Of a stretch of 50,020 nucleotides of DNA, positions 6,109-49,936 are shown piece by piece; the first letter of the stretch is position 1, and each line of letters begins with the position of its first letter. The DNA comes from a candidate division SR1 bacterium (GTDB lineage Bacteria > Patescibacteriota > Gracilibacteria > Absconditabacterales > Absconditicoccaceae). The position numbers and the translations under genes were made by a program. The notes under the pieces are model-generated. The model ran no database searches. It saw only the letters and a list, made by a program, of their open reading frames with translations, and had not been told where the DNA came from. The stretch lies in NCBI GenBank assembly GCA_026397515.1, contig JAPLUU010000007.1:1-50020 (forward strand). The letters run 5' to 3'.

Positions 6109-7551
6109 TTATTTTCTAATTTTCCCATGGGGAGTTCCTTCAGCAAATCATGCTATCGTTTGTACGCCTACAATTGCTTTATCCGTAAATTCTTGTAAAT
6201 TATTTGCACCGACATAGGTCATAGAAGAGCGTAATCCTGTCATAAATTCGTCGACAACATCTCACACAGATTCCATTCATGGATTGATATATATTTTTGA
6301 GCTAGATATTCCTTCGCGAAACATCTGCTTTTTTGCAAGTTCAAATAAAGATACTTTCTGATTTCTTCACACAACAGCTTTCCTAGATGCCATGCCATAA
6401 TTTTCTTTATACATCAATCCACGTTCATCATATTTTACATCGCCGACAGATTCAAACACTCAAGCAAACATGGTTCCTATCATCACCTGATTTGCTCATG
6501 CAGCCAATGCGAGAATCATATCTCTCGGAGATTTTACTCCTCCATCAGCTCGGACAAATCATCAAAGTTTTTTAGCTTCTTGAGCACATTTGTAGACGGC
6601 CGTAAATTGCGGTCTACCGACTCAAGTTTTCATTCTTGTTGTACACATCGCTCATGGACCTATGCCTACTTTGACACCATTCGCTCCAGCTTCGATCAAC
6701 GCTCTCGTCGCTTCAGCAGTGATGACATTTCATGCAATCACGGTAGCTTCAGTACCAAATTGTTGTCTAAATTTTTTCACGGTATCAATCATGGATTTTT
6801 GATATCCATGCGCCGTATCCAAAACAAACGTTCTGATTCATAAATCATACAATACACGGACTTTTTCATCAAACGAATTTACTCAGACAGCAACAGCGAC
6901 ATCAAGCTTTCCATGAACATCTAATGTCGGTTGATAAATACTATTTCTGATAGTATTTTTTTTGGTAAGAATTCATTTCAAAATTCCTTGATCATCGACA
7001 ATGGGCAATGAAGATATTCATTTTTCGTCCATGAGGTTAAACGCTTCTTCGTCAGATATTCATAGTTTTCAGGTGATTAAATTTGTTTTATTGATATTTC
7101 CCAGCAAGGTAAATTGATCGAGTTTTTCTAAGTCCTGAGGCTTAAAAATAGAAAGTGCTTTCCCCTGATCATCAATCATAATGACACAATTATGTGCTCT
7201 TTTGGTAATCACTCACAACGCATCTCTGATAGTATGAGAAGCTTTCATGGTAATCGGACTATCATAATGCACATCAGCAGATTTGAGCGAAGTGATAATA
7301 GTTTTGAGTGTCTCGATATCCATATCTTGTGGTAAAACGGCAAGTCATCCATAACGTGCAAGTGTTTCAGCCATTCTTCTTCATGAGACAGCATTCATAT
7401 TTGACGATACAATAGGAATATGTGTTCCAAAAGATACGACAGGATGTACATCTATTTCCAGTCTCGATTTCCCTTCAAAATAATTTTGAAATAAGAAGAC
7501 ATCTTCATAGGTAAGCTCTTCATTTTCGTAGAGTGTGTTATTAAATTTCAT
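6109..7551 (-). CDS. IMP dehydrogenase / GMP reductase family protein, GuaB1 type
   Basis: 480 residues: a TIM barrel with two CBS domains inserted near residues 90-200. The sequence follows the GuaB1 branch rather than ordinary GuaB: GRRMAETLARYGGLAVLPQD early on, [20 protein letters not shown] at the active-site loop (catalytic Cys in MCTTR), FAGVFESVGD, and SSMTYVGANNLQEF near the end. A mycobacterial GuaB1 has been characterised as a GMP reductase (GMP to IMP), so this enzyme may make IMP rather than use it. Many glycines are UGA. A CGA at 6550-6552 (FVxADGGV) sits where I recall Trp in GuaB1. It is divergent from purA, which consumes IMP. ATG at 7551 gives MKFNNTLYE; an in-frame ATG six codons upstream is possible but less likely. 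Confidence 0.9.
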
Positions 7552-9287: not shown

Positions 9288-9779
9288 ATGGCTGAAGAAA
9301 AGTATATCCGCCCCACACGAGATGAATATTTTATGGAAGTAGCAAAAACAGTAGCCAAAAGAGCAACATGTGATAGAGGAAGAAGTGGTTGTGTTATAGC
9401 AAAAAATAAACAAATTTTATGTACAGGATACGTAGGCTCACCTCCATGATTACCACATTGTGATGAAGTCGGACACCAGTTTAAACAAATGACCCATGAA
9501 GATGGAAGTGTTACCAATCATTGTGTAAGAACCGTACATGCAGAACAAAATGCTATCTGTCAGGCAGCAAAATTATGAGTCAGTATAGAATGAGCGACAT
9601 TATATTGTAAGATGACACCATGTAGAACATGTGCAATGTTGATTATCAGTTGTGGAATAAAACAGGTATTCGCAGAAAAGAAATATCATGCAGGTGCTGA
9701 ATCAGAAGCAATGTTTAAAGAAGCAGGCGTAGAACTTAAATATTTCGAAGAATCCATAGAAAAATACGAAAAACAATAA
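9288..9779 (+). CDS. Deoxycytidylate (dCMP) deaminase family protein
   Basis: 163 residues. Deaminates dCMP to dUMP for dTMP synthesis. The zinc site is complete: HAEQNA (His plus catalytic Glu) and TPCRTCA (PCxxC). The middle part GYVGSPPGLPHCDEVGH is typical of dCMP deaminases. The N-terminal motif reads RPTxDEYFMEVA with x = CGA (9318-9320), where the family has an almost invariant Trp (RPSWDEYF); this is one of the cleanest CGA=Trp sites in the window. Three glycines are UGA. A second, more divergent deaminase is encoded at 36046. Confidence 0.92.
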
Positions 9780-10336: not shown

Positions 10337-13300
10337 TTATGGAGTTGTTGATTCAGGTGAAGTTTCTCAATTCTCTTCGTTTTGATTCATCCTTGCTCTG
10401 ACAGCGAAAACAATAACAAGAATAATAAATACACCGACAACAATTCATAATACAATAAGTATTATTTTCCACCACGTAGATCATCACGTAGCATTAGCTG
10501 CTTTTATAGCATCTGCATTAGCTACAATTTTGACATTATCATTTGGACATGCATCACTGACGATAGTATAGAAAGCAAGTATTTTACACATATTTGGCAT
10601 GATAGTTGTTTGCATATCCAACGGATCTATTTGATTAGTTTGTACCGTTGCTCATGCAAGAGCAAGATTTTTGCTTATGAGATTAATAATCTCTTGGAGA
10701 ACAGCTTTTCTCTTATCTTGTTGAGAAGAATTTGCTTGAGTAGTATCAGAAATAACTGATTCAAATTCCTTGAAAAGTCATTCAACATCTACCGCAAGAT
10801 TTGATGGTAAGATAGAAAGTATTTCAGCTTTTGACTGTTGATATATATTACCACCACCTGCAGCGGAAACAGCTTTATCAGTAAGTTTGGTAAAGATATC
10901 TTCAAGTAATGTTTTTTGTTCGGCAGTAAGTTGTATACCTTTTGTTTCATAATAATCTTTTACCGAAACAATATTGGATTTTGTATCTATCTGATCAATC
11001 AATCCATCTCTAAGACCTACCATAAGCGTTCTGAAATTGCTCATATCACCAGTAGATCAAATAGCCTGAAGGGTATTAATGAAATCATTAATCTCTTTGT
11101 AAACTATAGTCATCTCTGGACTCAGATTCGCCTGAAAATCTAAAAATGAGACAGTAAAGTCTTTGGAAAATGCAGTAGTATCGGCTTTGGTATAATAAAT
11201 TCTTCAAACGACGGATTCATATTTTGGCTCGTATTTTTTAAGATAAAGTTCATTACATAAAAAATCTTTATCATTATCTTTGATGCCATCTCCATTATTA
11301 TCAAATGCAATATCTGTATCTACATAACACGTTCCTCTAGAATCATCATATTTGATATACATCAAAATACTATTGTTGAGATTTTTTCAGACGAAGAAAT
11401 CGATGATACCACTAGCAATAGAAACCTTAGGGATAGAAAGAATATGGAAGTCACCAGCATTGGCAGTGCCTGTTGTCAGATTTAATGTCCGTCTTTTATC
11501 TGCTATGTTGGCATACGTATCAGTTACCGCCATAGAAATAAAATATTTACTGAAATCAGGATACGTAAACGTAAAAGCATCACCCGTAGTGATAACAAAT
11601 CATGAACCGTTTTTACAATCTTTGATACTCAGACAAATATTTTTTTCCGCAATAGTACCCAAACTTACATCTCTAAAGATAACAAGTTTTTCAAAAGCAT
11701 CAGACAATAACATTGGTTTGAGTCAATTCTTTACAACGATAGTACCTCAGACACCAATTCATTTATATCATCTATATAATACTGCTGCTCTTGGTCTATA
11801 TCATAGTTCGTTAGGCTCAGTATATACATGTTGTACATGATCAGATTTAGTAGTCAAATCTCGCGTTCAATCACCATCAAAATCATATTGGATAGTTCTC
11901 TCTCTTATAAAATCAGGTCTATCAGAAATTATTTTTGAAACAACATCAAAAGTAACTTCATCACCAATTTCAACACTTACAAGATCAGATTTTAAAGTAA
12001 CCAAAGGAATGTCTGGTCTACTTACATCAGGTGGAAAAAACACTAATGGTCCATTCCCGATAATATCTTGATTGCTTTGTTGTCCTTCATCATTGTCATA
12101 CATAGTTACACCAAACATAAACTCACCTGGCACTCTCGGTAATGAGAAGAATACATACGGAATAGTTCCCGGAGTGATTTTAGTTTCTATTGCTCTAGTT
12201 GGATCATCTTTATAATAGAAATACCATTTGAAATAAGAAATAAATCCATCAGGATCAATAGGATTGGTAGCACTCACCTTAACTATCAAAGGATCAAACG
12301 TATCATTGAAAATATCTTTCGCATTATTTTCCTTAAACCCTACACCAACCTCATTTCCATATTGAGGAAAGAAAAGCACAAGATTATCAAGTTTAGGTAA
12401 AGCATTAACGACTTTAAAATATATTCTGACCTTATCACTCTTGGAAATTGTTGTATCTTCAGAGGTAAGATCAACATATGTACATCCCAATTCATTAAAT
12501 TTATATTTGAATATATCTTGTTTATAAATCTCATTGTTTTGTGGCTGAAAGAAAAATTGAAGTCATATTTTTTCTCACTTGGTATTTACCGACAAAGAAG
12601 GATCAATAGTAAAATCAGCATATCTATCTATCCTATATGCAGGGACCGTACCACTTCATGAATCAATATCAGGACATTCATCATTTTGTGTTTGTACATT
12701 TGATGTTTTATCAATGACAGCAAATCAGACCACAGGATAATTTTTTTCTCATACGAATACATTTTTACTTACTTCATTTTCCATACCATCTGCTCAACTT
12801 ACTTTGAGTACAACCTTATAGATACCTGATTTTTTATAGGTGTGAGCTATCTTATCTGTCTGAATTGTCCTTGTATCTGTATCTGCAAAATCCCATTGAT
12901 AATTGAGAATTGGTTGATTGGATTTTACCACAAAATTCATAGGATTACCCCAAGGAGTAGCGATAGGGACAACAAATATTGTAGGTCTTAAAACAGATAA
13001 TACATTTACGTCTTTCTCTATCTCTGCAATCTTTCCATAATCATCTCTCGTCGTAAGTTTAATTGTTTGTTTACCTAAAGTATCAAACTGAACAACAACT
13101 TTTTCATTATTATTTTCAGAATTAACAATCTTGCTCGTAGTAGGATTTGAAAACGACCGTTCATAGGTAAGATGGTCATATCCATTAATTTTATCAACAT
13201 CAGAACTAACCGATGCATCCAAGATAAATTCAGAAGGATTTTTTCGACTATTACTTGGAGTAATAGTAAACTGAGGAATAGGATCGGTAGATTCTACATA

Positions 13301-16973: not shown

Positions 16974-17987
16974 TTATTTATTTGTAAATTCTAATATTCA
17001 AGCCAATCCAATCATCGCAGCATTGTCCATAGAATAGACCTTTTTCATCGGTCTGAGGACTACGGTTTCTGGCATTTTTTCCTTAGCATAGCTTTGTAAA
17101 TATTCTCGTAATCTATCGTTACATGAAACTCCTCCAGCAAGTCATAACGTCTTTGCATCGAAAGCGATTCATGCTCTGATCAATTTTTTGATCATAACTT
17201 CGACGACCGCTTCTTGAAATTCATATGCAATATCGCAGATCAGCTCTTCCGTCAATGGAGTTCATTTTTTTTCTAACTGTTTCAAAAGAAATGAAACCTG
17301 ACTTTTCATTCACGAAAAACTGAATTCGAAGCCTTCTTTGGAAAGGAAGATTCTTTTGAATTCAACGTCACTATTTGGTTTTCCTTGCAAAGCTTTTTCT
17401 AAAATTCGTTGTCCTCCAGGGTACGGTCCTCATAGCATTCTCGCAACCTTATCAAAGCACTCACCTGCTGCATCATCCAACGTATATCAGACTTTTTTGA
17501 TTCGATATCATCAGAATTGATGAGCTTCTTCAGTAGCTGAATCAGTGACGACGTAAATATCATTGTGTCCACCACTCGCAGTCAACACGACAAGCGGGAA
17601 TTGAAGTTCAGATGTCTTTCTGTCGAGTAATAATGAAAATAAATGTCCGTAAATATGATTTACATGTACGAGCGGTTTAGTGAAATAGCTCGCAAGTAGT
17701 GAAGCTACGGCTTTACCGACAACTAAAGAGCCAGGAAGTCATGGATGAACCGTTACGCTGATAAAATCCACATCCTTAATAGTATCAAACCCGATATTTT
17801 TTATCACTTCAAGAATTTTATCATAATGAAGTCTAGATGCAATTTCAGGCACTACACCACCATATTGTTGATGGTCTTGGATTTGAGAATAAGCCAAAAG
17901 TGCATCAACGGTAAAAATCTGTGAATCAAAGTTCACTATTCCCACAGAAGTATCATCACAACTGGTTTCTATAGCTAAAGTTTTCAT
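16974..17987 (-). CDS. tsaD: tRNA N6-adenosine threonylcarbamoyltransferase
   Basis: 337 residues. Transfers threonylcarbamoyl to A37 of ANN-decoding tRNAs. Diagnostic stretches: MKTLAIETSCDDTS, YGGVVPEIASRLH, PGLPGSLVVGKAVA, HVNHIYGHL (metal-binding His pair), VVLTASGGHND, GYTLDDAAGECFDKVAR, YPGG and GGVSCNDRL. Several conserved glycines (GLPGSL, GGH) depend on UGA. ATG at 17987 is chosen because the 21 residues upstream of it have no family match. Tandem palindromic repeats lie about 50 bases upstream. Confidence 0.95.
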
Positions 17988-20442: not shown

Positions 20443-22023
20443 CTATTGTATGGGTGGATAAACATCAGCCTCTACGGTCAAACCACGACCCAATTTTTTG
20501 AGTAATGGTAAAGAAATAAGTGCTACTGATCAATTAAGTATGATAGCTATCACAAAAAAAGTAAGATAGGTCATATGAATATAAGAAGTTACTCATCGTC
20601 CAACCACAGCAAATCAACACATAATCAAAAGCATTTTAATCAAAATAGAGACATTGAGGATAGGAGAAACTTTCATACGAAATCACGTAATAATAGCTCA
20701 AGAGGTAAACAAAATTTCCATAAGCATTTGAGTAACTACCGCTCACAAAAGTCACCACCCAAGAGTAAATCATCGAGCAGGAATAGTATATAATCATACA
20801 AATATTCAAATGAAAACACCTACACCATTTACTAGAAGAAGAACATTTTGCTTTCAAGTAGCTACAAAAACGTAGTTATACACCTGTTTTATAAAACTAA
20901 AAATAAGTACGATACCTAAAAATGGCAATAATTGATTTGATCACCAATGTGCTATTGAATCCCAACTTCACATAAAACTTTTGTCTGATGTAACTCTAAT
21001 AACCATATCAGCAAATACACAAAAATTTACCGCAAAAAGACAACCAAACCAAATCATAAGACTCAGTAGACTACCAAGACTTTTACGTTTATGAAGATCA
21101 GAATAAGTAGATATATTATGAAGAAGACTATTTCACAATGCTGATGGAATGATAAGAAGGATTTCTATCAACCCCAAGGAAAGTCACCGTAATCACGAAT
21201 AATTTACACCAGACATAGTAGGATAAAACCACGTCAAAAACAACAATGGCAGCAACGTATGAAAACTACTAAGATAATAAGAGACACCATAGTTTCGGTT
21301 TGTTTTTATCGTATTTCCGATAAATTTCCAATCCCAAATAATTTTGAGTGGTAATATTCTCCTCGATCTAATTCAAATTTCAATATTTTGTCATATTCAG
21401 CTTCAGACGACAGAAAACAATACTAAACAAAATGCTATGACACCGACAGTAGTAGGTCAAGACATAAAGTCTACATGTTTGAAAAGCAAATATACTACAG
21501 GAAGCAAAATCACAAGTTGACTCAATCTTGCGGTGATAAGCGTAATACTCAACTTTTCCATTTTCCAAAAAAGCTGTAATGGTAATTGTTGTATTCCTGC
21601 AAACATAAAACTCGCAGAAAATAAAAGTCCAAAAGGTAATCACCAAAGATAATATGGGTTAGCTCTATAACTAGGAATCATATATGCTATACCGATAGCT
21701 ACAGCATAGATCACTACCATTGTCACAATCCTTGTCGCTACAAACTTTCCATATTCTGATTTAAGTTCAGTATTATCTGGATCATTTTTACACTTTTCTT
21801 TGAGTTCACCAAGCCTTTTGACTGCCAAAACATACAGACCAAGATCTGCCAAAGCCGTTCGAAATGCAAAATATTTAAGGATAGAATTATAATCTCCATA
21901 TCTCAGAGATCACAAATAAGATGCCATAATTTTGGTTGTAACAAACCCAAAAACAGCACTGATTATCCTAGACATCAACTGCCATGCTGCATCTTTAATA
22001 ACCAATCTATGTGAAGAAACCAT
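20443..22023 (-). CDS. Polysaccharide/oligosaccharide flippase-like membrane protein
   Basis: 526 residues with roughly a dozen to fourteen hydrophobic segments. The N-terminal part (KDAAWQLMSRIISAVFGFVTTK, YLGSLRYGDYN, ADLGLYVLAVKRLGE) is typical of the RfbX/Wzx and MurJ-like superfamily: a first helix pair, then LGxxxYG and ADLGL. It likely moves a lipid-linked sugar across the membrane for surface glycan or wall assembly. Many UGA glycines in the C-terminal half explain why standard-code translation breaks there. It ends 12 bases from the convergent S1-domain gene. Confidence 0.85.
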
Positions 22024-22618: not shown

Positions 22619-23349
22619 GTCAATTCTTCCAGTCTTTTGGAAGATAACGAAGTCGGAATTTCAAAAGATATATCTGATTTTTTTTTGATCATCTTCTGGA
22701 TTGCTCCCAAAGTTTTTCTACTAAACGGCGCAAATAATTCCAAAAACTCGACAACTTTTTCAAAAGGGATTTTGGGTTGTTCTGGTTTAATAGTCAATTG
22801 AATAAGACAACTCTTCACTTTTGGTACAGGTTTGAAACATTTTGCAGGTACTCATTTTAAATAGGTAACGTCACAAGAATAATTAAGTAATCGTCGTAAA
22901 TATGATTTTTTCTTAGCATCACTTTTGAGCTTGAGACCTACCTCATCTTGCACCATAAAGATTCATCAAGCATAGTGTTGAGCGCTAAAAAATTTTCTCA
23001 AAATCGGTGAAGTGATATAGTAGGGAAGATTTCCAACGATTAAAGTTTTTTGAGGACTCAGATGTTTTTCTTGTAACACTGCTTCGACATCCAGTTCTAG
23101 AATATCAGACAGAATAAATTGTCAATTCGTAATCTGTAATTGTCAATTATCATAGAATGTCGGATCCATATCTACCACGAAAAAATGATCAGAAATAGTT
23201 TGGATAAGTTTAGTGATGGAGCCCTTACCAGGTCATATTTCGATTAATGCTTCACATCATGTTGTAGTATACAACGCCAAAATCTTGTCAGCGATATAGC
23301 TTCTGATCTTTGCATCGATAAGAAAGTTCTGTCCAAGATATGTTCACAT
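22579..23349 (-). CDS. rsmA: 16S rRNA dimethyladenosine transferase
   Basis: 256 residues. Dimethylates two adjacent adenosines near the 3' end of 16S rRNA during small-subunit assembly. Signatures: GQNFLID at the start, EIGPGKGSIT (SAM-binding motif I with two UGA glycines), VVDMDP, IVGNLPYYITSPI (the NLPY motif) and the C-terminal LFAPFSRKTLGAIQKM. It begins ATG-UGA (Met-Gly). The frame continues cleanly through five or six UGA codons. A palindromic repeat touches its start codon on the upstream side. Confidence 0.94.
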
Positions 23350-24734: not shown

Positions 24735-24825
24735 TATATATTGATTTCATATAACGTATCTATACACTAAATAAAAAAGGGCCCAAAGAAAACATAGTAC
24801 AAACTCATAAAAAATGGAGGTATAT

Positions 24826-25446
24826 ATGAACACACAGAAAAATATCGTAAAGATTGTAATAACCGGTGGACCATGTGCGGGGAAATCAACCGTACTCACA
24901 AGTATAAACCAAGCACTGAAACATACAGGATGGAAAACATTCATTGCCCAAGAGATGGCAACAAGACTCTTCCAATCAGGTGTGGAAATTTCAGAAAAAG
25001 GACTATCATTATATCAATTTCAACAACAGTTACTCCTTCGTCAAATCAACGAAGAAGATTTTATCAAAGCATTAGCAGAAGACCACAAGTACGATAATGT
25101 TGTACTCTTATGTGATCGAGGAATAATGGATGGACAAGCATATATGTCAGAAGAAGATTTTGGTAAAATTTTACAATATAATGGATATACAAGAAAACAA
25201 GTAACAAACGAACGATACGATCTTGTTATCCATTTGACTACTGCAGCGTATGGAGCTGAAAAATTCTATACATTAGCAAACAACGAAGTACGCACAGAAA
25301 ACATCGCTGAAGCGAGAATATTGGACGATAGGATCAAAACCGTATGGAAAGAACACCCAAATGTACGGATAATCGACAACAGTACGTGTTTTCAAGGAAA
25401 AATCGATCGTACAATTCAAGAGATACATTCATATCTACACATGTAA
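24826..25446 (+). CDS. AAA_28-type P-loop ATPase/kinase-like protein
   Basis: 206 residues from the ATG at 24826, which has GGAGG five bases upstream (24816-24820); the earlier ATG at 24814 overlaps that site. Walker A is GGPCAGKS (14-21). VVLLCDRGIMDGQAYM, DLVIHLTTAAYGAEKFYT and ILDDRIKTVWKEHP follow the AAA_28 / NadR-like family. In that family the Arg of DRG is strongly conserved; here it is CGA (25117-25119), a codon that reads as Trp elsewhere in this window. With zero UGA codons, the gene looks written in the standard code and recently acquired. Function unknown. Confidence 0.85.
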   Translation: MNTQKNIVKIVITGGPCAGKSTVLTSINQALKHTGWKTFIAQEMATRLFQSGVEISEKGLSLYQFQQQLLLRQINEEDFIKALAEDHKYDNVVLLCDRGIMDGQAYMSEEDFGKILQYNGYTRKQVTNERYDLVIHLTTAAYGAEKFYTLANNEVRTENIAEARILDDRIKTVWKEHPNVRIIDNSTCFQGKIDRTIQEIHSYLHM

Positions 25447-30176: not shown

Positions 30177-30956
30177 TTAAGCGGCTTTGATTTGGTATGG
30201 AGTACTTCCATTATATAATTTATTCATAGCATCAACATCATCTTGGGTTCGTGTATACTTATTCAAATCTGCACGATACCATGAAGGAACTTTATCTGCA
30301 GCCGGACCAGCCATATAATCATAATCAATGTGACCTGAAATATGTGCATATATAGTATCACCAACCAAGTAAAATGGAGTAGATACATAATCTGATTCTA
30401 TGCTCTGCTTATCAGCCTTGATGTCATTTTTAAGCCACTTTACTTTAGCAATCCTAAGTGCTTCCTTATCCTTTTTTTGTGCTTCTTTAACTTCTTGAAG
30501 TGTTTTTTTTACAACGATTCAGCTATTTATTGATTTTTTATATAAATCATTTACATAGGTGGTATCTTCTTTGGTCCATGCATATTTATAATTTTCCATA
30601 ATATCATTATCCAAAACACCGCTTTTGTGTTTCGCCTTGATATATGATCAGGTCAAAGAATAAAAGAAAGGGTTTCCATCGTATACCTCATCTATCTGTA
30701 ATTTTCCTGCTTTAATATCATTGATGATTGATTGGACTCTTTCAGCCATAAAATTCACCTTATCCTGAGAAAGAACTTCATTACCACTCAAAAAAGAATA
30801 TTGTTCTTCCATCTTCGTCTTAGCATCATCTGCTTCTTTTTTGCTAACACTTTCGATAACCTTACTCTGTTTCTGTACAGAACTAATATCAAAAGATGTA
30901 CCAACAATTTTGGTATCTTTTTTAAGATCTAAATCTGCTGCTTTTTCTATTCACAT
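30177..30956 (-). CDS. Tandem paralogue array, member 1: two-module protein of unknown function
   Basis: 259 residues, last in transcription order. Begins ATG-UGA with the conserved start (MGIEKAADLDLKKDTKIVG then TSFDISSVQKQSK). Two copies of a module of about 110 residues follow: a helix with INDIKAGKLQIDE, a PFFYS strand, an AHIS/YIKA block and an aromatic motif (YAWTKEDTTYVNDLY; KYTxTQDDVDAMNKLY with x = CGA). The most divergent member, ending PYQIKAA rather than WQKRAKQM. No signal peptide or membrane span. Confidence 0.75.
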
Positions 30957-31073
30957 AGTACATAAGTAAAGGTATAAAACATAACTATGATTAATTATAC
31001 TCGCACATATTCAATTTGTTAAATTTGATTGAGGGTATTTTTATTGTTGGTATAATGGACAATGTAGTGCTAA

Positions 31074-31868
31074 TTACATTTGCTTAGCTCTCTTTTGCCA
31101 ATACTCATTATTCATATACGTTACATCTTGTTCCGTCCATGTATATTTCTGTTGCTTTATATTATTAAGACCTATGCTGACATCACTAGATTCATCTTTC
31201 ATAAAATCATAGTCGAAAGTATTCTTGATATGTGCCATTATACTTTTTTCTTTAGTACTAAAGTAAAATGGAGCTTTTCGGTATTCTGATTCTATATCTT
31301 GCTTACCAGACTTAATATCATTGATAAGCCACTGTACCTTATCAGACATAAATTTTTCTTTACTCTTTTTTAAAGATTCTCGGATCTCTAAAGGTGATTG
31401 TTTTACAATGGTTCATACAGACTTCCATTGTTTGTATAAATTATTCATATATGTTGTATCTTCTGGAGTCCATGTATGTGTATCATCACCTATAATATCA
31501 GAATCTGGAGTATTTTTAATGTGAGCACGAATATGTAGTGGTAAATTTTTATCCTTATTCGGCTGTATATACGAATAAAAAGGAGTATCTTGATGATTTT
31601 CCTCTATTGCAATCTTTCATGCGCTAATATCATTGGTAACTTCCTTAACTTTTTTAAACATGATATCTATCTTATTCTCCGACATGGTTTCATTACTTTT
31701 CAAAAAGGAATATTGTTCTTCCATCTTCGTTTTAGCGGCATCTGCTTCTTTTGTACTAGCATTTTCGATGATCTTACTCTGTTTCTGTACAGAGCTAACA
31801 TCAAAAGATGTACCAACAATTTTGGTATCTTTCTTAAGATCTACATCTGCTGCTTTTTCTACTCACAT
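31074..31868 (-). CDS. Tandem paralogue array, member 2: two-module protein of unknown function
   Basis: 264 residues. Same conserved N-terminus (MGVEKAADVDLKKDTK then IVGTSFDVSSVQKQSK), a Lys/Glu-rich helix, and two modules each built as NDI-S/K-GK-IE, PFYSY or PFYF, AHIKNT and a TWTPEDTTYMNNLY / YTWTEQDVTYMNNEYW motif. Ends WQKRAKQM. The intergenic sequence to the next member is also conserved, showing recent duplication of gene plus leader. UGA and CGA are used as in native genes. Confidence 0.8.
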
Positions 31869-31985
31869 AGTACATAAGTAAAGGTGTAAAATATAACTAT
31901 ACTTGATTATACTTGCACATATCCAATTTGTCAAATTTTCTTAAGCATATTCTGATTTTTGATGTAACTGAAAAATTAGAGACAA

Positions 31986-32783
31986 TTACATTTGTTTAGC
32001 TCTTTTTTGCCAATAGAGGTTATTCATATAGACCACATCTTCTGGAGTCCATGTATATTTATGCAATGACGTGCTTTTAAGGGCTGCATTATAACCACCA
32101 AATCCATCTACCATAAAGTCATAATCTCCCTGATTCTTGATATGTGCCTTTATTGTTTTAGTTTCAGCTTGAGGATAAAAATAAAATGGAGTTTCTCGAT
32201 ATTTTGATTCTATCTCCTGCTTACCAGACTTAATATCATTGATAAGCCATTGTACCTTGTCAGACATATATTTTTCTTTACCCTTTTTTAATGACTCCTT
32301 GATCTCTTGAGGTGATTGTTTCACAATGGTTCATGTAGATTCCCACTGTTTGTATAGATCATTCATATATGTCGTATCTTCTCGAGTTCGTGTATATTTA
32401 TTATACTCTATAAGATCAAAATCATTAGCACCTTTAACATGGGCATAAATATTTTGTGGGTTAGTATGATACTTATTTGGTTTGGCATACAAATAAAAAG
32501 GAGCATCTTTATGATCTTCCTCTATTACTAACTTTCATGCCTTTATATCCTTGATAAGTGAATTAACGGTATCAAACAGAATATTCAACTTATCATCCGA
32601 AAGGGTTTCATCTCCCTTCAAAAAAGAATATTCTTCTTCCATCTTTGTTTTAGCTACATCTGCCTCTTTTTTGGCATCTTCGGTAGCCTTATTCTGTTTC
32701 TGTACAGAACTAGCATCAAAAGATGTACCAACAATTTTGGTATCTTTCTTAAGATCTACATCTGTTGCTTTTTCTATTCACAT
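31986..32783 (-). CDS. Tandem paralogue array, member 3: two-module protein of unknown function
   Basis: 265 residues. Closest to member 4 in its first module. Module 1 has KYTxTxEDTTYMNDLY with both x = CGA, where other members have TGG and CCA or CGA; module 2 has KYTWTPEDVVYMNNLYW with TGG. The swap of TGG and CGA at the same aligned site is direct evidence that CGA reads as Trp. Ends WQKRAKQM. Confidence 0.8.
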
Positions 32784-32905
32784 AGTACATAAATAATAAG
32801 ATAAAAGATAACTATATTCGATTATATCATATCAAAACACCATCAATTTTTCAAATCCTCTTGAGCATATTCTGATTTTTGAGGCGACTGAAAAGTTAGA
32901 GATAA

Positions 32906-33709
32906 TTACATTTGTTTAGCTCTCTTTTGCCAATAGAGGTTATTCATATAGACTGCATCTTCTGGGGATCGTGTATATCTCTGTTGTTTCATATCATGAA
33001 GATCTATATTCACACCACTAGATCCATCTAGCATAAAATCATAGTCGGTAGTATTTTTGATATGCGCCATTATTGTTTGATTTTCAGCATCTTCAGCATT
33101 AAAGTAGAATGGAGTTTCTCGATATTTTGATTCTATATCTTGCTTGCCAGCTTTGATATCGTTGATAAGCCATTGTACCCTATCAGACATATATTTTTCT
33201 TTATCTTTTTTTAAAGATTCTCGGATTTCTAAAGGTGATTGTTTTACAATAGTTCATGTAGACTTTCGTTGTTTGTATAAATTATTCATATATGTCGTAT
33301 CTTCTCGAGTTCGTGTATGTGTATCATCACCTATAATATCAGAATCTGGAGCATTTTTGATGGTGGCACGAATGTGTAATGGTAGAGTATGATATTTATT
33401 AGGCCTTACATATAAATAAAAAGGAGCATCTTTATGGTCTTCCTCTATTACCGACTTTCATGATTTTATATCATTGATAAGTGAGGTAACGGCATTAAAC
33501 AAAATATTTACTTTATCCTCGGGAATGGTTTCATCACCCTTCAGAAAAGAATATTGTTCTTCCATCTTCGTTTTAGCTGCATCTGCTTCTTTTTTGCCAA
33601 CGCTTTCGATAACCTTACTCTGTTTCTGTATAGAGCTAATATCAAAAGATGTACCAACGATTTTGGTATCTTTCTTAAGATCTACATCTGCTGCTTTTTC
33701 TACTCACAT
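32906..33709 (-). CDS. Tandem paralogue array, member 4: two-module protein of unknown function
   Basis: 267 residues, first in transcription order. MGVEKAADVDLKKDTK start; first module with INDIKSGKSVIEEDHKD and PFYLY, THTxTxEDTTYMNNLYKQxKS (x = CGA); second module INDIKAGKQDIESKYRET, PFYF, AHIKNTTDYDFM, YTxSPEDAVYMNNLYW. Charged, soluble-looking and without export signal. No homologous family known to me. Confidence 0.8.
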
Positions 33710-33860
33710 AGTACATAAGTAAAAGTGTAAAATATAACTATACTTGATTATACTCACACATATTCAATTTGTCAAATTTTTTTGAGAGTATTTTATTGTT
33801 GATATACGTGAAAAAATATAGTACAATAGAATATAGAAATATATTTTTTCAAGATTTAAA

Positions 33861-33906
33861 AGAGAAAATATTTCTTGTTTGACATAAAAAACAAGATTAG
33901 TAGTAT
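33861..33906 (+). promoter_or_regulatory. Right copy of the direct repeat, with promoter-like boxes for mltG
   Basis: TTGACA (33879-33884) lies inside the 31-base repeat (33861-33891), followed after 16 bases by TAGTAT (33901-33906), 30 bases before the mltG ATG. Confidence 0.5.
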
Positions 33907-33935
33907 TAGCAGACATTTATTTAGTAAACCATCAC

Positions 33936-43035: not shown

Positions 43036-44415
43036 ATGAAACTAACTTTTTGTTGAGCAGCCAAAATCGTTACCGGATCATGTTATTATATCGAGACATG
43101 AACGAAAAAATTTCTTATAGACTGCGGGATGTTTCAATGACCCAAAGAAGTTATGAGGTTAAATTATGAACCATTTCTTTTTGATCCCAAAGAGATAAAT
43201 TTTATACTTCTTACGCACGGACATATCGATCACTGCGGATTGATTCCTAAGTTATATAAACAAGGATTTACCGGAAAAATTTATACAACAGCAGCGACAC
43301 TTGATATTTGTGATATTATTTTGGAAGACAGTGCTACAATCCAAGAAAGAAATATCGAAGAAGAAAATAAAAGAAGAAAGCAAAATCACCTACCACCGAG
43401 ATTTCCTATGTATACCGTAGATGATGCGAAAGCATGTATGAAATTATTTCAAGCTATAAAATATAAAGAAACAATTAAACTGACAGATACCATCGAAGCG
43501 AAATTCCAAGATGCAGGACATATTCTCTGATCAGCGAGCATTGAACTATTCGTGACTGAATGAGACAAAAAAACTAAGTTAGTTTTCTCAGGAGATATAG
43601 GACAACGAGATACACCTATCGTACAAGATCCGACATTGATTGCGGATGCAGATTATCTATTTATGGAATCGACCTACGGAGACAGAAAACACGAAGACAC
43701 TGCAGGTAAAAAAGAATTATTGATAAAATATGTTGATGAAACATTTAAAAAATGAGGAAAAGTTTTGATTCCATCGTTTTCTGTAGAAAGGACTCAAGAA
43801 TTACTCTATTTCTTCAATATCATCATCAAAGAATGAAATTTTCCCGCAGAAAAAATATTTTTAGATAGTCCATTGTCTATCAAAGCGACAGAAGTCTTCA
43901 AAAAACATACAGAAGTATTTGACGAAGAAGCATTACACAAATATCCTAATGCATTCGATTTCGAACAGTTAGAATGTACACAAACTGTCGAAGATTCTAT
44001 AAAGTTAAATACGTATAATAATCCATGTATCATTATAGCAGGAAATGGAATGTGTACAGCTGGAAGAATAACACATCACCTTCTTCATGGACTTTTAAAT
44101 AAAAATAATACAGTACTTTTCGTAGGATACCAAGCTGATGGAACATTAGGAAGACATATTCTAGAATGAGAAAAAAAAGTATGGATGATGGGAGAAACAG
44201 TTACAGTAAATGCAGAAATAGCAAAAATAAACGGATTTTCTGGACACGCAGACTCAGAGCAACTACTAAGACGAGCAAAAGGATTTACCAAAGCACCAAG
44301 AAAAACATTTATTATTCATGGTGAATGAAATGCACAAATGACATTAAAATGAAAGCTAGAAGAAATAGGTTTCACCTGTGATATTCCAAGTCTAAGAGAT
44401 AATGTAGAATTATAA
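43036..44415 (+). CDS. Metallo-beta-lactamase/beta-CASP RNase-like protein
   Basis: 459 residues. The metal motif THGHIDHCG (HxHxDH) near residue 61, GHILGSASIEL, FSGDIG, MESTYGDR, then the beta-CASP blocks IPSFSVERTQELLYF, DSPLSIKATEVF, IIIAGNGMCTAGRI and GFSGHAD, ending in FIIHGEGNAQ. These are the marks of CPSF-73-like and YSH1-like RNA nucleases, here probably in RNA processing or decay. CGA at 44272-44274 (EQLLRxAKGF) aligns with a Trp usual in HADxxxLLxW. About 13 UGA glycines, including motif glycines. Confidence 0.93.
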
Positions 44416-47080: not shown

Positions 47081-49936
47081 ATGCCAGAAATCAAAAAAAA
47101 ATATAATCACTTTTCTATAGAATCAGAACTCCTCAAAAAAAACTATTTTCAAAAACTCTTTACGACCAAGAAAAATACAGTAAAACGAGAAACGGTTATA
47201 ACACAATTGCCGATTACTATAACAAAAGATACATCTTTGGCTTCTATCAGTGGTCTCATCAAAGAAGACGTGATAGCAACATATCAAATAATGAAATGAA
47301 TCAAATCAAAACTATTACCTATTTTTGATACTGAAGAAAAAAATATTAAAACAGAAAATTACGAAAATCTACTTACCAAAGCAGGTATATTTTTTAGTAT
47401 CGATACTGACAATATCGTCTATTCAGAAAGAAATACAAATTTTGTAAGAAATTTATTTGTTGAACTCGTTGAAGATTGACATATTTATGAAGACTGCTCT
47501 ATCAATCATCGAAGTCTTCAAGAACAAAAAACATTGGGTACTGACGAAATACAGTATAAAAAAATGCAAGTCAAAGAATATAATCTGAGATATTTTGTAG
47601 ATACAAAAAATATATCGCTCATTGTGCCTACAATCTGGCCAGAAACACTATTTGCTGATGTGGCACTTGCCGTACATCCAGATGATAAAAGATATAAAAA
47701 ATTGATCAAAAATAAGGTAATCATACCAATCATCAACAGAACAATCCCTATTATCGGAGACGAATCCATAGATCCAACCAAAGGTACATGAATAATGAGA
47801 ATTACACCAGCACATGACAAACATTCACTGATAATAGCACAAAAAAATGATTTAAAAATAGATAATTTTGCAATAGACAAAAATGGTTGTTTCACAAAGT
47901 CAGCAGGTGATTTTTGTGGTAAAAATGCAAGTGAGTTTATAAAAAATATCGTAAAAAATCTTGATGATATCCACAATCTTGAATCTACAAAATATATAGA
48001 GACAGAAATTGCTGTACATAGAAAAACAAATGAAAGAGCACGACCACTCCTCTGTAACCAATTATTTATCAAAACAGACAAAGAGTTGGAAAATATTCAA
48101 ACAGCAATCCAAGAAAAAAAACTCACTATCACACCAGAATATTATGAAGAAAACATAGCAGACGTAATCAGTAAAATGGAATATTGGCCAGTTACCAAAG
48201 AAGACTCTAAATGATATTCATTACCACTTTGGAAAAATAAAAGTGGAAAAAATTATTTTATCTCTGATAATGAAATTCTCAATTTACCAGTAAAAAAAAC
48301 AAAGAACAAATTTACCGTTCTTTCGCTTATCATATTCAATCTTATCGTAGATAGACGTATGAAACAAGAGTTTAGCATTGAAGAATGTATAGATATTTTA
48401 TTAGGGAAAAGTCGTACAGGAGAACAAAATACACTCGAAGCATATATCGAGCTTTTTAATGAAACACTTCCAAGAGGATACAGCAAAGAAATCAATGAAC
48501 TGAAAAAAATAATAGAATATACAGAAAAAGATATAAACTCTAAAAAAGGGAAATGAATAGGTCATTTTGAAAAATTTTCGATAACATTGACAAACTTTTT
48601 GGAAAAATCTATAGCAATCTCAAGCAACAGAAAATGATTTTATAGCTTTGATATAGATACATTAGTACCAAACGATACATGACTTATCCAGCAAAAAGAA
48701 AAAATTGAAGAAACACTAGGTCATGCATTGATTTTAATCAAAATGATGGAGGCATTTGACGACAGTAAAAAACAACCACAAAAAATATTTTGTATAAACG
48801 AAAATAAAGTTTTTGAGTTTCTCAAAACTATTATCATAGGATATAACGTACAAAATAAGATGTTGTTTGATACATGCTATATACAGAAAGAACAGAAAAC
48901 AAACAAAAAAAATAAAGAAACATTTAAAGAACTTATAAAAAACTTTTGAACAGATTGTACAAGATTGTATGCAATAGATCCTGATAAAGATATAACAGAA
49001 TATGATAATTTTATAAGCAAACTACGAAATGCATCCAGATTTGTTTGACAACATATATATGAAAAAAAATGAACAAGAAAAATAGCAGACTTTGAGCAAT
49101 TGACAACATATCTAGAAAAAAGAAAAAACGAATTAAGTGAATTTGAACTTTGGATTATTTATAAAACCATTGAACTTCAAAAAGAATATGAAGACGCTAT
49201 GGCAAAAAACGCACTTCCAGAAATTCAAGAAAAAATAATTACCCTAATCAAAGATGATTTCTGTGATAAATATTTAGAGATACAAAAACATCAAGACACA
49301 GAAAATGGGAACAAGGTAACATTATGGTGTCTAGGAACTTTATTGAAGCTTTTACACCCATTCATCCCGTTCATAAGCCAACAAATACGAGAATTATTGG
49401 GCCTTGATTGACCAGTTTTGGCACAAGAGATACAAGAACAGTTTACCACAATCAGCAAAAATTACAAAACACAGCTTTTCATGGATATCATAGATAAGTT
49501 TCTCAATATGAAACAAAAATATGAATATGCAAAGCATGAAGAGATAGAAATATGTTTCTTTGCTCCATTAGATTTTTTACAATATCTCAGGAAACAAGAA
49601 AAAATAATTTATAAACTGATTAATGCATCATCGATTGAATACCTCGAAAACGAAAAAGAACTCGAAAAATATCATATAGAAAGTATTATCAACATCACCA
49701 TAGGTATCAAAATAGAACGTAAAAAAACAGTAGTCACCAATAAGAAAGAAGATATCCGTGAAAGTTTACGTGAAAAAGAACAAGAACTTCAATCAATGAG
49801 AACAATGATGCCTAGCCTTTCATCAAGTGGTGCAGATCCCGAGGTTATCAGAGGAAAAAAGAAAGAAATGACCAAACTTAAAAAAGATATAGAAGAACTC
49901 CAATACCAGCTTCAAAAAGAAAAAGCAAATAAGTAA
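47081..49936 (+). CDS. Valyl-tRNA synthetase-like protein lacking catalytic signatures
   Basis: 951 residues in one frame through about eight UGA codons. The editing (CP1) region is recognisable: VPTIWPETLFADVALAVHPD, INRTIPIIGDESID and GTGIMRITPAHD. C-terminal parts also fit ValRS: GTDCTRLYAI, SKLRNASRFV, LLHPFIPFISQQIxELLG (x = CGA at 49388, Trp in ValRS), EICFFAPLD and a final coiled coil. The catalytic signatures are gone: the HIGH position reads in TSLASISGLIKED, the KMSKS loop in KTNKKNKETFKE, and the CISRQ block is also lost. It is therefore probably not an active ValRS but an editing or tRNA-binding paralogue; a true valS must lie elsewhere. Confidence 0.85.

What the first reader, a model, noticed from the sequence alone, without database searches (positions are those of the whole stretch)
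9318..9320. CGA (and probably CGG) reads as tryptophan, a second recoding
Seen: CGA occurs where families have Trp: RPTxDEYF in dCMP deaminase (9318), EGxSIYDI in MltG (34263), LLRxAKGF in beta-CASP (44272), FVxDSYRR and AHDxAEDGK in PPDK (29158, 28300), FVxADGG in GuaB1 (6550), GLxTTV in PvlArgDC (3264), HKAYAxVD in Nudix (15728), QIxELL in the ValRS-like protein (49388). CGG at 13157 gives YExSF in a PKD domain. Core Arg sites (LysRS RKRYLD, DSYRRF, YNTRAVRG) use AGA, AGG, CGT or CGC. I recall such a reassignment being reported computationally for Absconditabacteria; unverified here.
Basis: partly seen in the sequence, partly recalled or inferred. Interest (0 to 1): 0.85.

Follow-up and report, generated by a model that had tools for sequence, protein, structure and literature searches.

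The report
CGA and CGG mean tryptophan here
In this uncultured SR1/Absconditabacteria-type bacterium the codons CGA and CGG, which spell arginine almost everywhere else, are very probably read as tryptophan, a change already predicted for its clade in 2021 but gone so far here that CGA is the commonest tryptophan codon.

Summary
The finding holds. The listed CGA/CGG codons are in frame where stated. The only tRNAs able to read CGA/CGG, anticodons UCG and CCG, have the tryptophan discriminator G73 with G/A1:U72 and lack the arginine determinant A20; no tRNA-Arg(ACG) was found. In codon alignments with same-family genomes, CGA/CGG stands opposite UGG 55 times and opposite the other Arg codons 4 times; AGA stands opposite CGA/CGG once in 678. 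Pfam scores favour Trp over Arg by about 95 bits over 24 genes; reading CGU/CGC as Trp costs about 24 bits.

The reassignment is published for Absconditabacteria (Shulgina & Eddy 2021, PMC8629427). Added here: CGA+CGG make up 57% of Trp codons, more than reported; the UCG/CCG tRNAs are nearest to sister families' tRNA-Trp; and the TrpRS anticodon loop is altered across the family, which is suggestive but unproven. One gene (24814-25446) has CGA/CGG at conserved Arg positions and looks imported from a standard-code donor. No peptide evidence exists here.

The parts
9318..9320 (+). CGA read as Trp in dCMP deaminase (RPT[CGA]DEYF)
   Evidence: in frame; CGA in 6 aligned relatives; Pfam +2.5 bits for Trp
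17406..17408 (-). CGA read as Trp in TsaD (PGGQ[CGA]ILEKA), the clearest interchange site
   Evidence: relatives have UGG in 10, CGA in 8, CGG in 3
13157..13159 (-). CGG read as Trp in the PKD-domain protein
   Evidence: relatives: CGA 5, UGG 1, CUG 1
11489..11491 (-). CGG read as Trp in the PKD-domain protein
   Evidence: relatives: CGA 4, UGG 3
21187..21189 (-). CGG read as Trp in the flippase-like protein
   Evidence: relatives: CGA 3, UGG 4
21859..21861 (-). CGA read as Trp in the flippase-like protein
   Evidence: UGG in all 7 aligned relatives
22891..22896 (-). tandem CGA CGA read as Trp-Trp in RsmA
   Evidence: second codon (22891) is UGG in 4 of 4 relatives, first (22894) CGA in 4 of 4
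6550..6552 (-). CGA read as Trp in GuaB1 (FV[CGA]ADGG)
   Evidence: UGG in both aligned relatives; Pfam +2.1 bits
3264..3266 (-). CGA read as Trp in PvlArgDC (GL[CGA]TTV)
   Evidence: Pfam +4.8 bits
15728..15730 (+). CGA read as Trp in the Nudix protein
   Evidence: Pfam +5.8 bits for the gene
44272..44274 (+). CGA read as Trp in the RMMBL domain of the beta-CASP protein
   Evidence: Pfam +7.1 bits for this domain
49025..49027 (+). CGA read as Trp in the ValRS-like protein (KL[CGA]NASRF)
   Evidence: anticodon-binding domain +7.4 bits together with 49388
49388..49390 (+). CGA read as Trp in the ValRS-like protein (QI[CGA]ELL)
   Evidence: anticodon-binding domain +7.4 bits together with 49025
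30177..33916 (-). four tandem paralogues r1-r4 in which UGG and CGA swap at the same positions
   Evidence: e.g. r2 KQ[UGG]KS against r4 KQ[CGA]KS (33266); r2 HT[UGG]T against r4 HT[CGA]T (33311)
17106..17108 (-). CGA in TsaD (DRL[CGA]EYL), a column that is Arg in standard-code relatives
   Evidence: CGA in 8 and UGG in 3 relatives, but other Arg codons in more distant ones; counts against Trp in Pfam
24814..25446 (+). ATPase gene whose CGA/CGG codons lie on Arg columns: the exception

Best explanation
CGA and CGG are sense codons for tryptophan in this genome, on top of UGA = glycine (code 25). Two tRNAs, UCG (reads CGA and, by wobble, CGG) and CCG (reads CGG), are charged by the single TrpRS because they carry G73 and G/A1:U72, and escape ArgRS because they lack A20. 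Arginine is left to AGA/AGG (tRNAs UCU, CCU) and CGU/CGC (tRNA GCG). Shown: the tRNA genes and their identity nucleotides, the codon interchange and the profile fit. Inferred: charging and decoding themselves. The two tRNAs most likely descend from a duplicated tRNA-Trp(CCA): CCA to CCG is one base change at position 36, with C35 kept. The TrpRS anticodon loop, which in E. coli reads C35 and A36, has changed in this family, plausibly so that G36 is accepted as well as A36 (inference, moderate confidence).
For: Opposite CGA/CGG, same-family genomes have UGG 55 and other Arg codons 4 times; AGA stands opposite CGA/CGG 1 in 678 within the family but 9 in 43 against standard-code class relatives. 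Site level: 21 UGG only, 1 Arg only, 2 both. Pfam: about +95 bits for Trp over 24 genes, control CGU/CGC as Trp about -24 bits. ValRS against 1gax: four CGA face W, three face Y/F, none R. tRNA-UCG and tRNA-CCG with G73, no A20, no ACG tRNA; same in 21 UCG and 21 CCG tRNAs across the family. Nearest tRNA outside those groups is tRNA-Trp in 38 of 42 cases, never tRNA-Arg. TrpRS loop T-D-S in 0 of 24 family members against 28 of 43 others; G73-reading Q152/E155 kept.
Against: TsaD (-7.0), ATPase (-6.9) and endonuclease III (-2.8) fit Arg better. In paralogues r2/r4 a CGA (31380, 33221) lies where r3 and r1 have Lys. No peptide or charging data. All tRNA and TrpRS evidence comes from draft genomes. 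The TrpRS change is one of about ten altered conserved columns, and S227 varies in standard-code relatives too.
Confidence: 0.96

Rival explanations
1. CGA and CGG keep their standard meaning Arg; the Trp-column sites are coincidence or selective citation.
For: Three of 24 genes score better with Arg; DRG of the ATPase.
Against: 55 to 4 interchange with UGG, about +95 bits, tRNA identity.
Confidence: 0.01
2. Ambiguous decoding: CGA/CGG are read mostly as Trp but to some extent as Arg, because the anticodons UCG/CCG keep C35 and G36, which ArgRS also favours.
For: Anticodons remain good ArgRS anticodons (PMC9976931); a few CGA codons sit at conserved Arg columns, some in both of two congeners.
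Against: A20 is absent in the family's UCG/CCG tRNAs as read from the sequences; AGA almost never interchanges with CGA/CGG inside the family (1 in 678), as it should if some Arg were inserted usefully.
Confidence: 0.1
3. The UCG/CCG tRNAs are former Arg tRNAs that switched identity by losing A20 and gaining G73 and A1:U72, as the 2021 paper proposes for the AGG-to-Met tRNA, rather than duplicated tRNA-Trp.
For: In G012 the UCG gene lies next to tRNA-Arg(GCG); 70-base trees are weak and mean identities to several tRNA kinds are alike, about 0.6.
Against: With anticodons masked the nearest outside tRNA is a tRNA-Trp in 38 of 42 cases and never a tRNA-Arg; a model of UCG/CCG retrieves tRNA-Trp in 11 of 16 class relatives.
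Confidence: 0.25

Closest known systems
CGA and CGG to Trp in Absconditabacteria (SR1), Shulgina & Eddy 2021, PMC8629427
   Same: Both codons to Trp, with UGA to Gly, low G+C, tRNA-UCG and tRNA-CCG with Trp identity, no tRNA-ACG, tRNA-GCG for CGU/CGC; relatives of the window are titled SR1.
   Different: The paper describes rare codons (CGA under 37, CGG mostly under 7 per 10,000 in Pfam-aligned columns) at an early stage; here CGA is 55 per 10,000 of called genes and CGA+CGG are 57% of Trp codons. The paper does not discuss TrpRS.
NCBI genetic code 25 (SR1 and Gracilibacteria, UGA = Gly)
   Same: 297 in-frame UGA in 41 window genes and a tRNA-UCA with G1:C72, C2:G71, G3:C70 and U73.
   Different: Code 25 leaves CGA and CGG as Arg, so it mistranslates this genome.
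CGG to Trp in Anaerococcus and in RFN20 Bacilli (PMC8629427)
   Same: Arg codon of the CGN box taken over by a Trp-type tRNA-CCG.
   Different: There only CGG changed and CGA stays Arg through tRNA-ICG; here tRNA-UCG moves CGA along with CGG.

Membership tests
CGA/CGG to Trp code of Absconditabacteria | CGA conserved at Trp positions | tested here: met
CGA/CGG to Trp code of Absconditabacteria | CGG conserved at Trp positions | tested here: met
   25 aligned cells: CGA 14, UGG 9, other Arg codons 0, unrelated 2; few sites
CGA/CGG to Trp code of Absconditabacteria | tRNA-UCG and tRNA-CCG with G73 and without A20 | tested here: met
CGA/CGG to Trp code of Absconditabacteria | no tRNA-Arg(ACG); CGU/CGC read by tRNA-Arg(GCG) | tested here: met
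   genome 95% complete
CGA/CGG to Trp code of Absconditabacteria | UGA read as Gly | tested here: met
   loss of release factor 2 not tested
CGA/CGG to Trp code of Absconditabacteria | membership of the clade | tested here: met
   nearest named TsaD homologues are titled candidate division SR1 or Gracilibacteria; GTDB name not shown by the tools
CGA/CGG to Trp code of Absconditabacteria | Trp inserted at CGA/CGG in proteins | not testable with these tools
   needs mass spectrometry
NCBI code 25 | all codons other than UGA keep the standard meaning | tested here: not met
   CGA and CGG are Trp

The most novel reading that the evidence does not exclude
In this family the reassignment is far advanced rather than early (CGA has become the commonest Trp codon), arose by duplication of tRNA-Trp with a change at anticodon position 36, and was accompanied by relaxation of the TrpRS anticodon loop (loss of the T-D-S motif that reads C35 and A36), so that one synthetase serves the CCA, CCG and UCG anticodons.
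Probability: 0.45. Interest if true: 0.65.

Novelty: new member of a known kind. Interest (0 to 1): 0.45.

Why it matters
Sense-codon reassignments in bacteria are rare and so far known from computation. This lineage stacks two code changes (UGA to Gly, CGA/CGG to Trp) and has carried the second so far that translation with code 11 or 25 puts Arg in place of more than half of its tryptophans. It also offers a testable account of how one synthetase came to accept new anticodons, and a natural case of a foreign gene written in the wrong code.

Tried and rejected

The ATPase at 24814 as evidence for Arg decoding: considered, but the homologue in the only relative that has it is just 57% identical (TsaD of the same pair 86%), neither copy has UGA among 12 and 17 Gly codons, and the gene is sporadic, so import from a standard-code donor is likelier. 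Lack of UGA in the window copy alone is not exceptional (p = 0.013 among 134 genes).

TrpRS G271K as a family signature: rejected, as Lys also occurs in 7 of 30 phylum members.

The PPDK sites as Trp columns: not supported by solved PPDKs. PDB search with the ATPase: no match.

A convergence test with Anaerococcus TrpRS: I found no route to that genus with the remaining tools.

Full report
OBSERVATION. The window is positions 1-50020 of contig 15 of a 1.21 Mb genome in 23 contigs, rated 95% complete. Read with UGA as Gly, its 41 genes contain 297 UGA, 77 CGA, 12 CGG, 84 UGG, 276 AGA, 34 AGG, 44 CGU and 15 CGC in 14,943 codons. Over 170 genes called in about 230 kb of the genome the numbers per 10,000 are CGA 55, CGG 6, UGG 47, so that CGA and CGG, if Trp, are 57% of Trp codons.

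CODON INTERCHANGE. I aligned the genes with ORFs of relatives (same genus, family and class; for the genomes, for the DNA), with CGA/CGG masked as X in the protein comparison so that no meaning was assumed, and counted the codon found opposite each codon. Opposite CGA/CGG: genus 91 CGA/CGG, 37 UGG, 2 other Arg codons; family 23, 18 and 2. Opposite UGG: genus 79 UGG and 30 CGA/CGG. Opposite AGA: 1 CGA/CGG in 507 (genus), 0 in 171 (family), but 9 in 43 against class relatives, most of which use the standard code. Cells are not independent; by site, 21 of 65 show UGG and no other Arg codon, 1 shows only other Arg codons (TsaD 17502, a variable column), and 2 show both. The clearest single site is TsaD 17406, with UGG in ten, CGA in eight and CGG in three relatives. 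The tandem paralogues r1-r4 (30177-33916) show the same swap inside the window, for example KQ[UGG]KS in r2 against KQ[CGA]KS in r4.

PROFILE TEST. Genes were scored against Pfam with CGA/CGG as Arg and as Trp. Summed over 24 genes with a family hit, the difference is about +95 bits for Trp; 15 genes gain more than 1 bit, 6 are neutral, and 3 lose (TsaD -7.0, ATPase -6.9, endonuclease III -2.8). The genome's true ValRS (locus L043) alone gains 29.2 + 10.4 bits. In its alignment to T. thermophilus ValRS, made with the query read as Arg, the eleven CGA codons face W, W, W, W, Y, Y, F, K, K, A and a gap, while fifteen AGA codons face Arg seven times. As a control, reading CGU/CGC as Trp in ten window genes costs about 24 bits.

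tRNAs. The genome's tRNA hits were all classified. CGA/CGG can be read only by tRNA-UCG (contig 7, about 27870) and tRNA-CCG (contig 20, 37055-37125). tRNA-UCG has G1:U72, G73 and U20; tRNA-CCG has A1:U72, G73 and U20; tRNA-Trp(CCA) has A1:U72 and G73. The three Arg tRNAs (GCG, UCU, CCU) have A20 and A73. No ACG was found. A20 is the main ArgRS determinant in bacteria and G73 a main TrpRS determinant (PMC9976931, PMC12135181). A covariance model of the UCG/CCG tRNAs searched over 40 relatives returned 21 UCG and 21 CCG tRNAs in the family. By inspection of the printed sequences they carry G73, with A1:U72 or G1:U72 in nearly all (the script mis-registered the acceptor stem of a few, for example G021 UCG and G014 CCG, which I read by eye). 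In 11 of 16 class relatives the same model retrieved tRNA-Trp(CCA). With anticodons masked, the nearest tRNA outside the two groups is a tRNA-Trp in 38 of 42 cases (36 from sister families, 2 from the family itself) and never a tRNA-Arg. This favours descent from tRNA-Trp, but trees of 70 bases are weak, and the sister tRNA-Trp set was itself retrieved with this model.

TrpRS. There is one TrpRS gene. In the E. coli TrpRS-tRNA complex Thr225, Asp226, Ser227 and Lys274 read C35 and A36, and Gln152/Glu155 read G73 (PMC12135181). I aligned family sequences to E. coli TrpRS, whose sequence I supplied from memory; its residues at the positions named match the paper. All 24 family sequences keep T225, K274 and E155, and 23 keep Q152. 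None keeps T-D-S: D226 is S, A, N, T or H in 19, and S227 varies. Of 43 other sequences (15 class, 28 phylum), 28 have T-D-S and 40 keep D226. This fits relaxed reading of position 36. But about ten other conserved columns also differ in the family, S227 is Thr in some standard-code relatives, and the family is a single evolutionary event, so it remains a hypothesis. The 2021 paper does not discuss TrpRS, and two library searches found nothing further.

THE AWKWARD GENE. In the ATPase 24814-25446 the CGA/CGG codons fall on Arg columns; the Arg of its DRG motif is present in all twelve homologues aligned. The gene has no UGA among 12 Gly codons, occurs in 2 of 41 relatives and 12 of 287 phylum members, and its congener homologue is only 57% identical, with no UGA among 17 Gly codons and again CGA in DRG. 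The two copies are probably separate imports from standard-code donors that have not been rewritten. Whether and how they work is unexplained; some Arg decoding of CGA is not excluded.

VERDICT. CGA and CGG are Trp here (0.96). The reassignment was predicted by Shulgina & Eddy for Absconditabacteria (PMC8629427). This genome is a further and far advanced case: across its genus CGA/CGG account for 39-58% of Trp codons in the stretches sampled, and 12-59% in other genera of the family.

Noticed in passing
24814-25446 (and L178, genome G004): AAA_28 ATPase gene with no UGA and with CGA/CGG at Arg columns, including the invariant DRG Arg, in a genome where CGA is Trp; apparently imported from standard-code donors, twice in the genus. 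Its function there is unexplained.
   Followed up: partly
L283 and L292 (genome G019): One family member has two TrpRS genes with different anticodon loops (T-H-S and T-D-A), possibly a division of labour between CCA and UCG/CCG tRNAs.
   Followed up: no
L202 (genome G035): A UGA=Gly genome of another family in the class shows a tRNA with anticodon CCA but C1:G72 and A73, unlike bacterial tRNA-Trp.
   Followed up: no
30177-33916: Four tandem paralogues of an unknown protein (about 260-340 aa) sharing an N-terminal GxEKAxDxDLKKDTKIVGTSFD motif.
   Followed up: no
47081-49936: ValRS-like protein separate from the genome's true ValRS (L043 4883-7294), with degenerate synthetase and anticodon-binding domains; probably a repurposed paralogue.
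   Followed up: no
53-2164: LysRS fused to a C-terminal HD domain.
   Followed up: no
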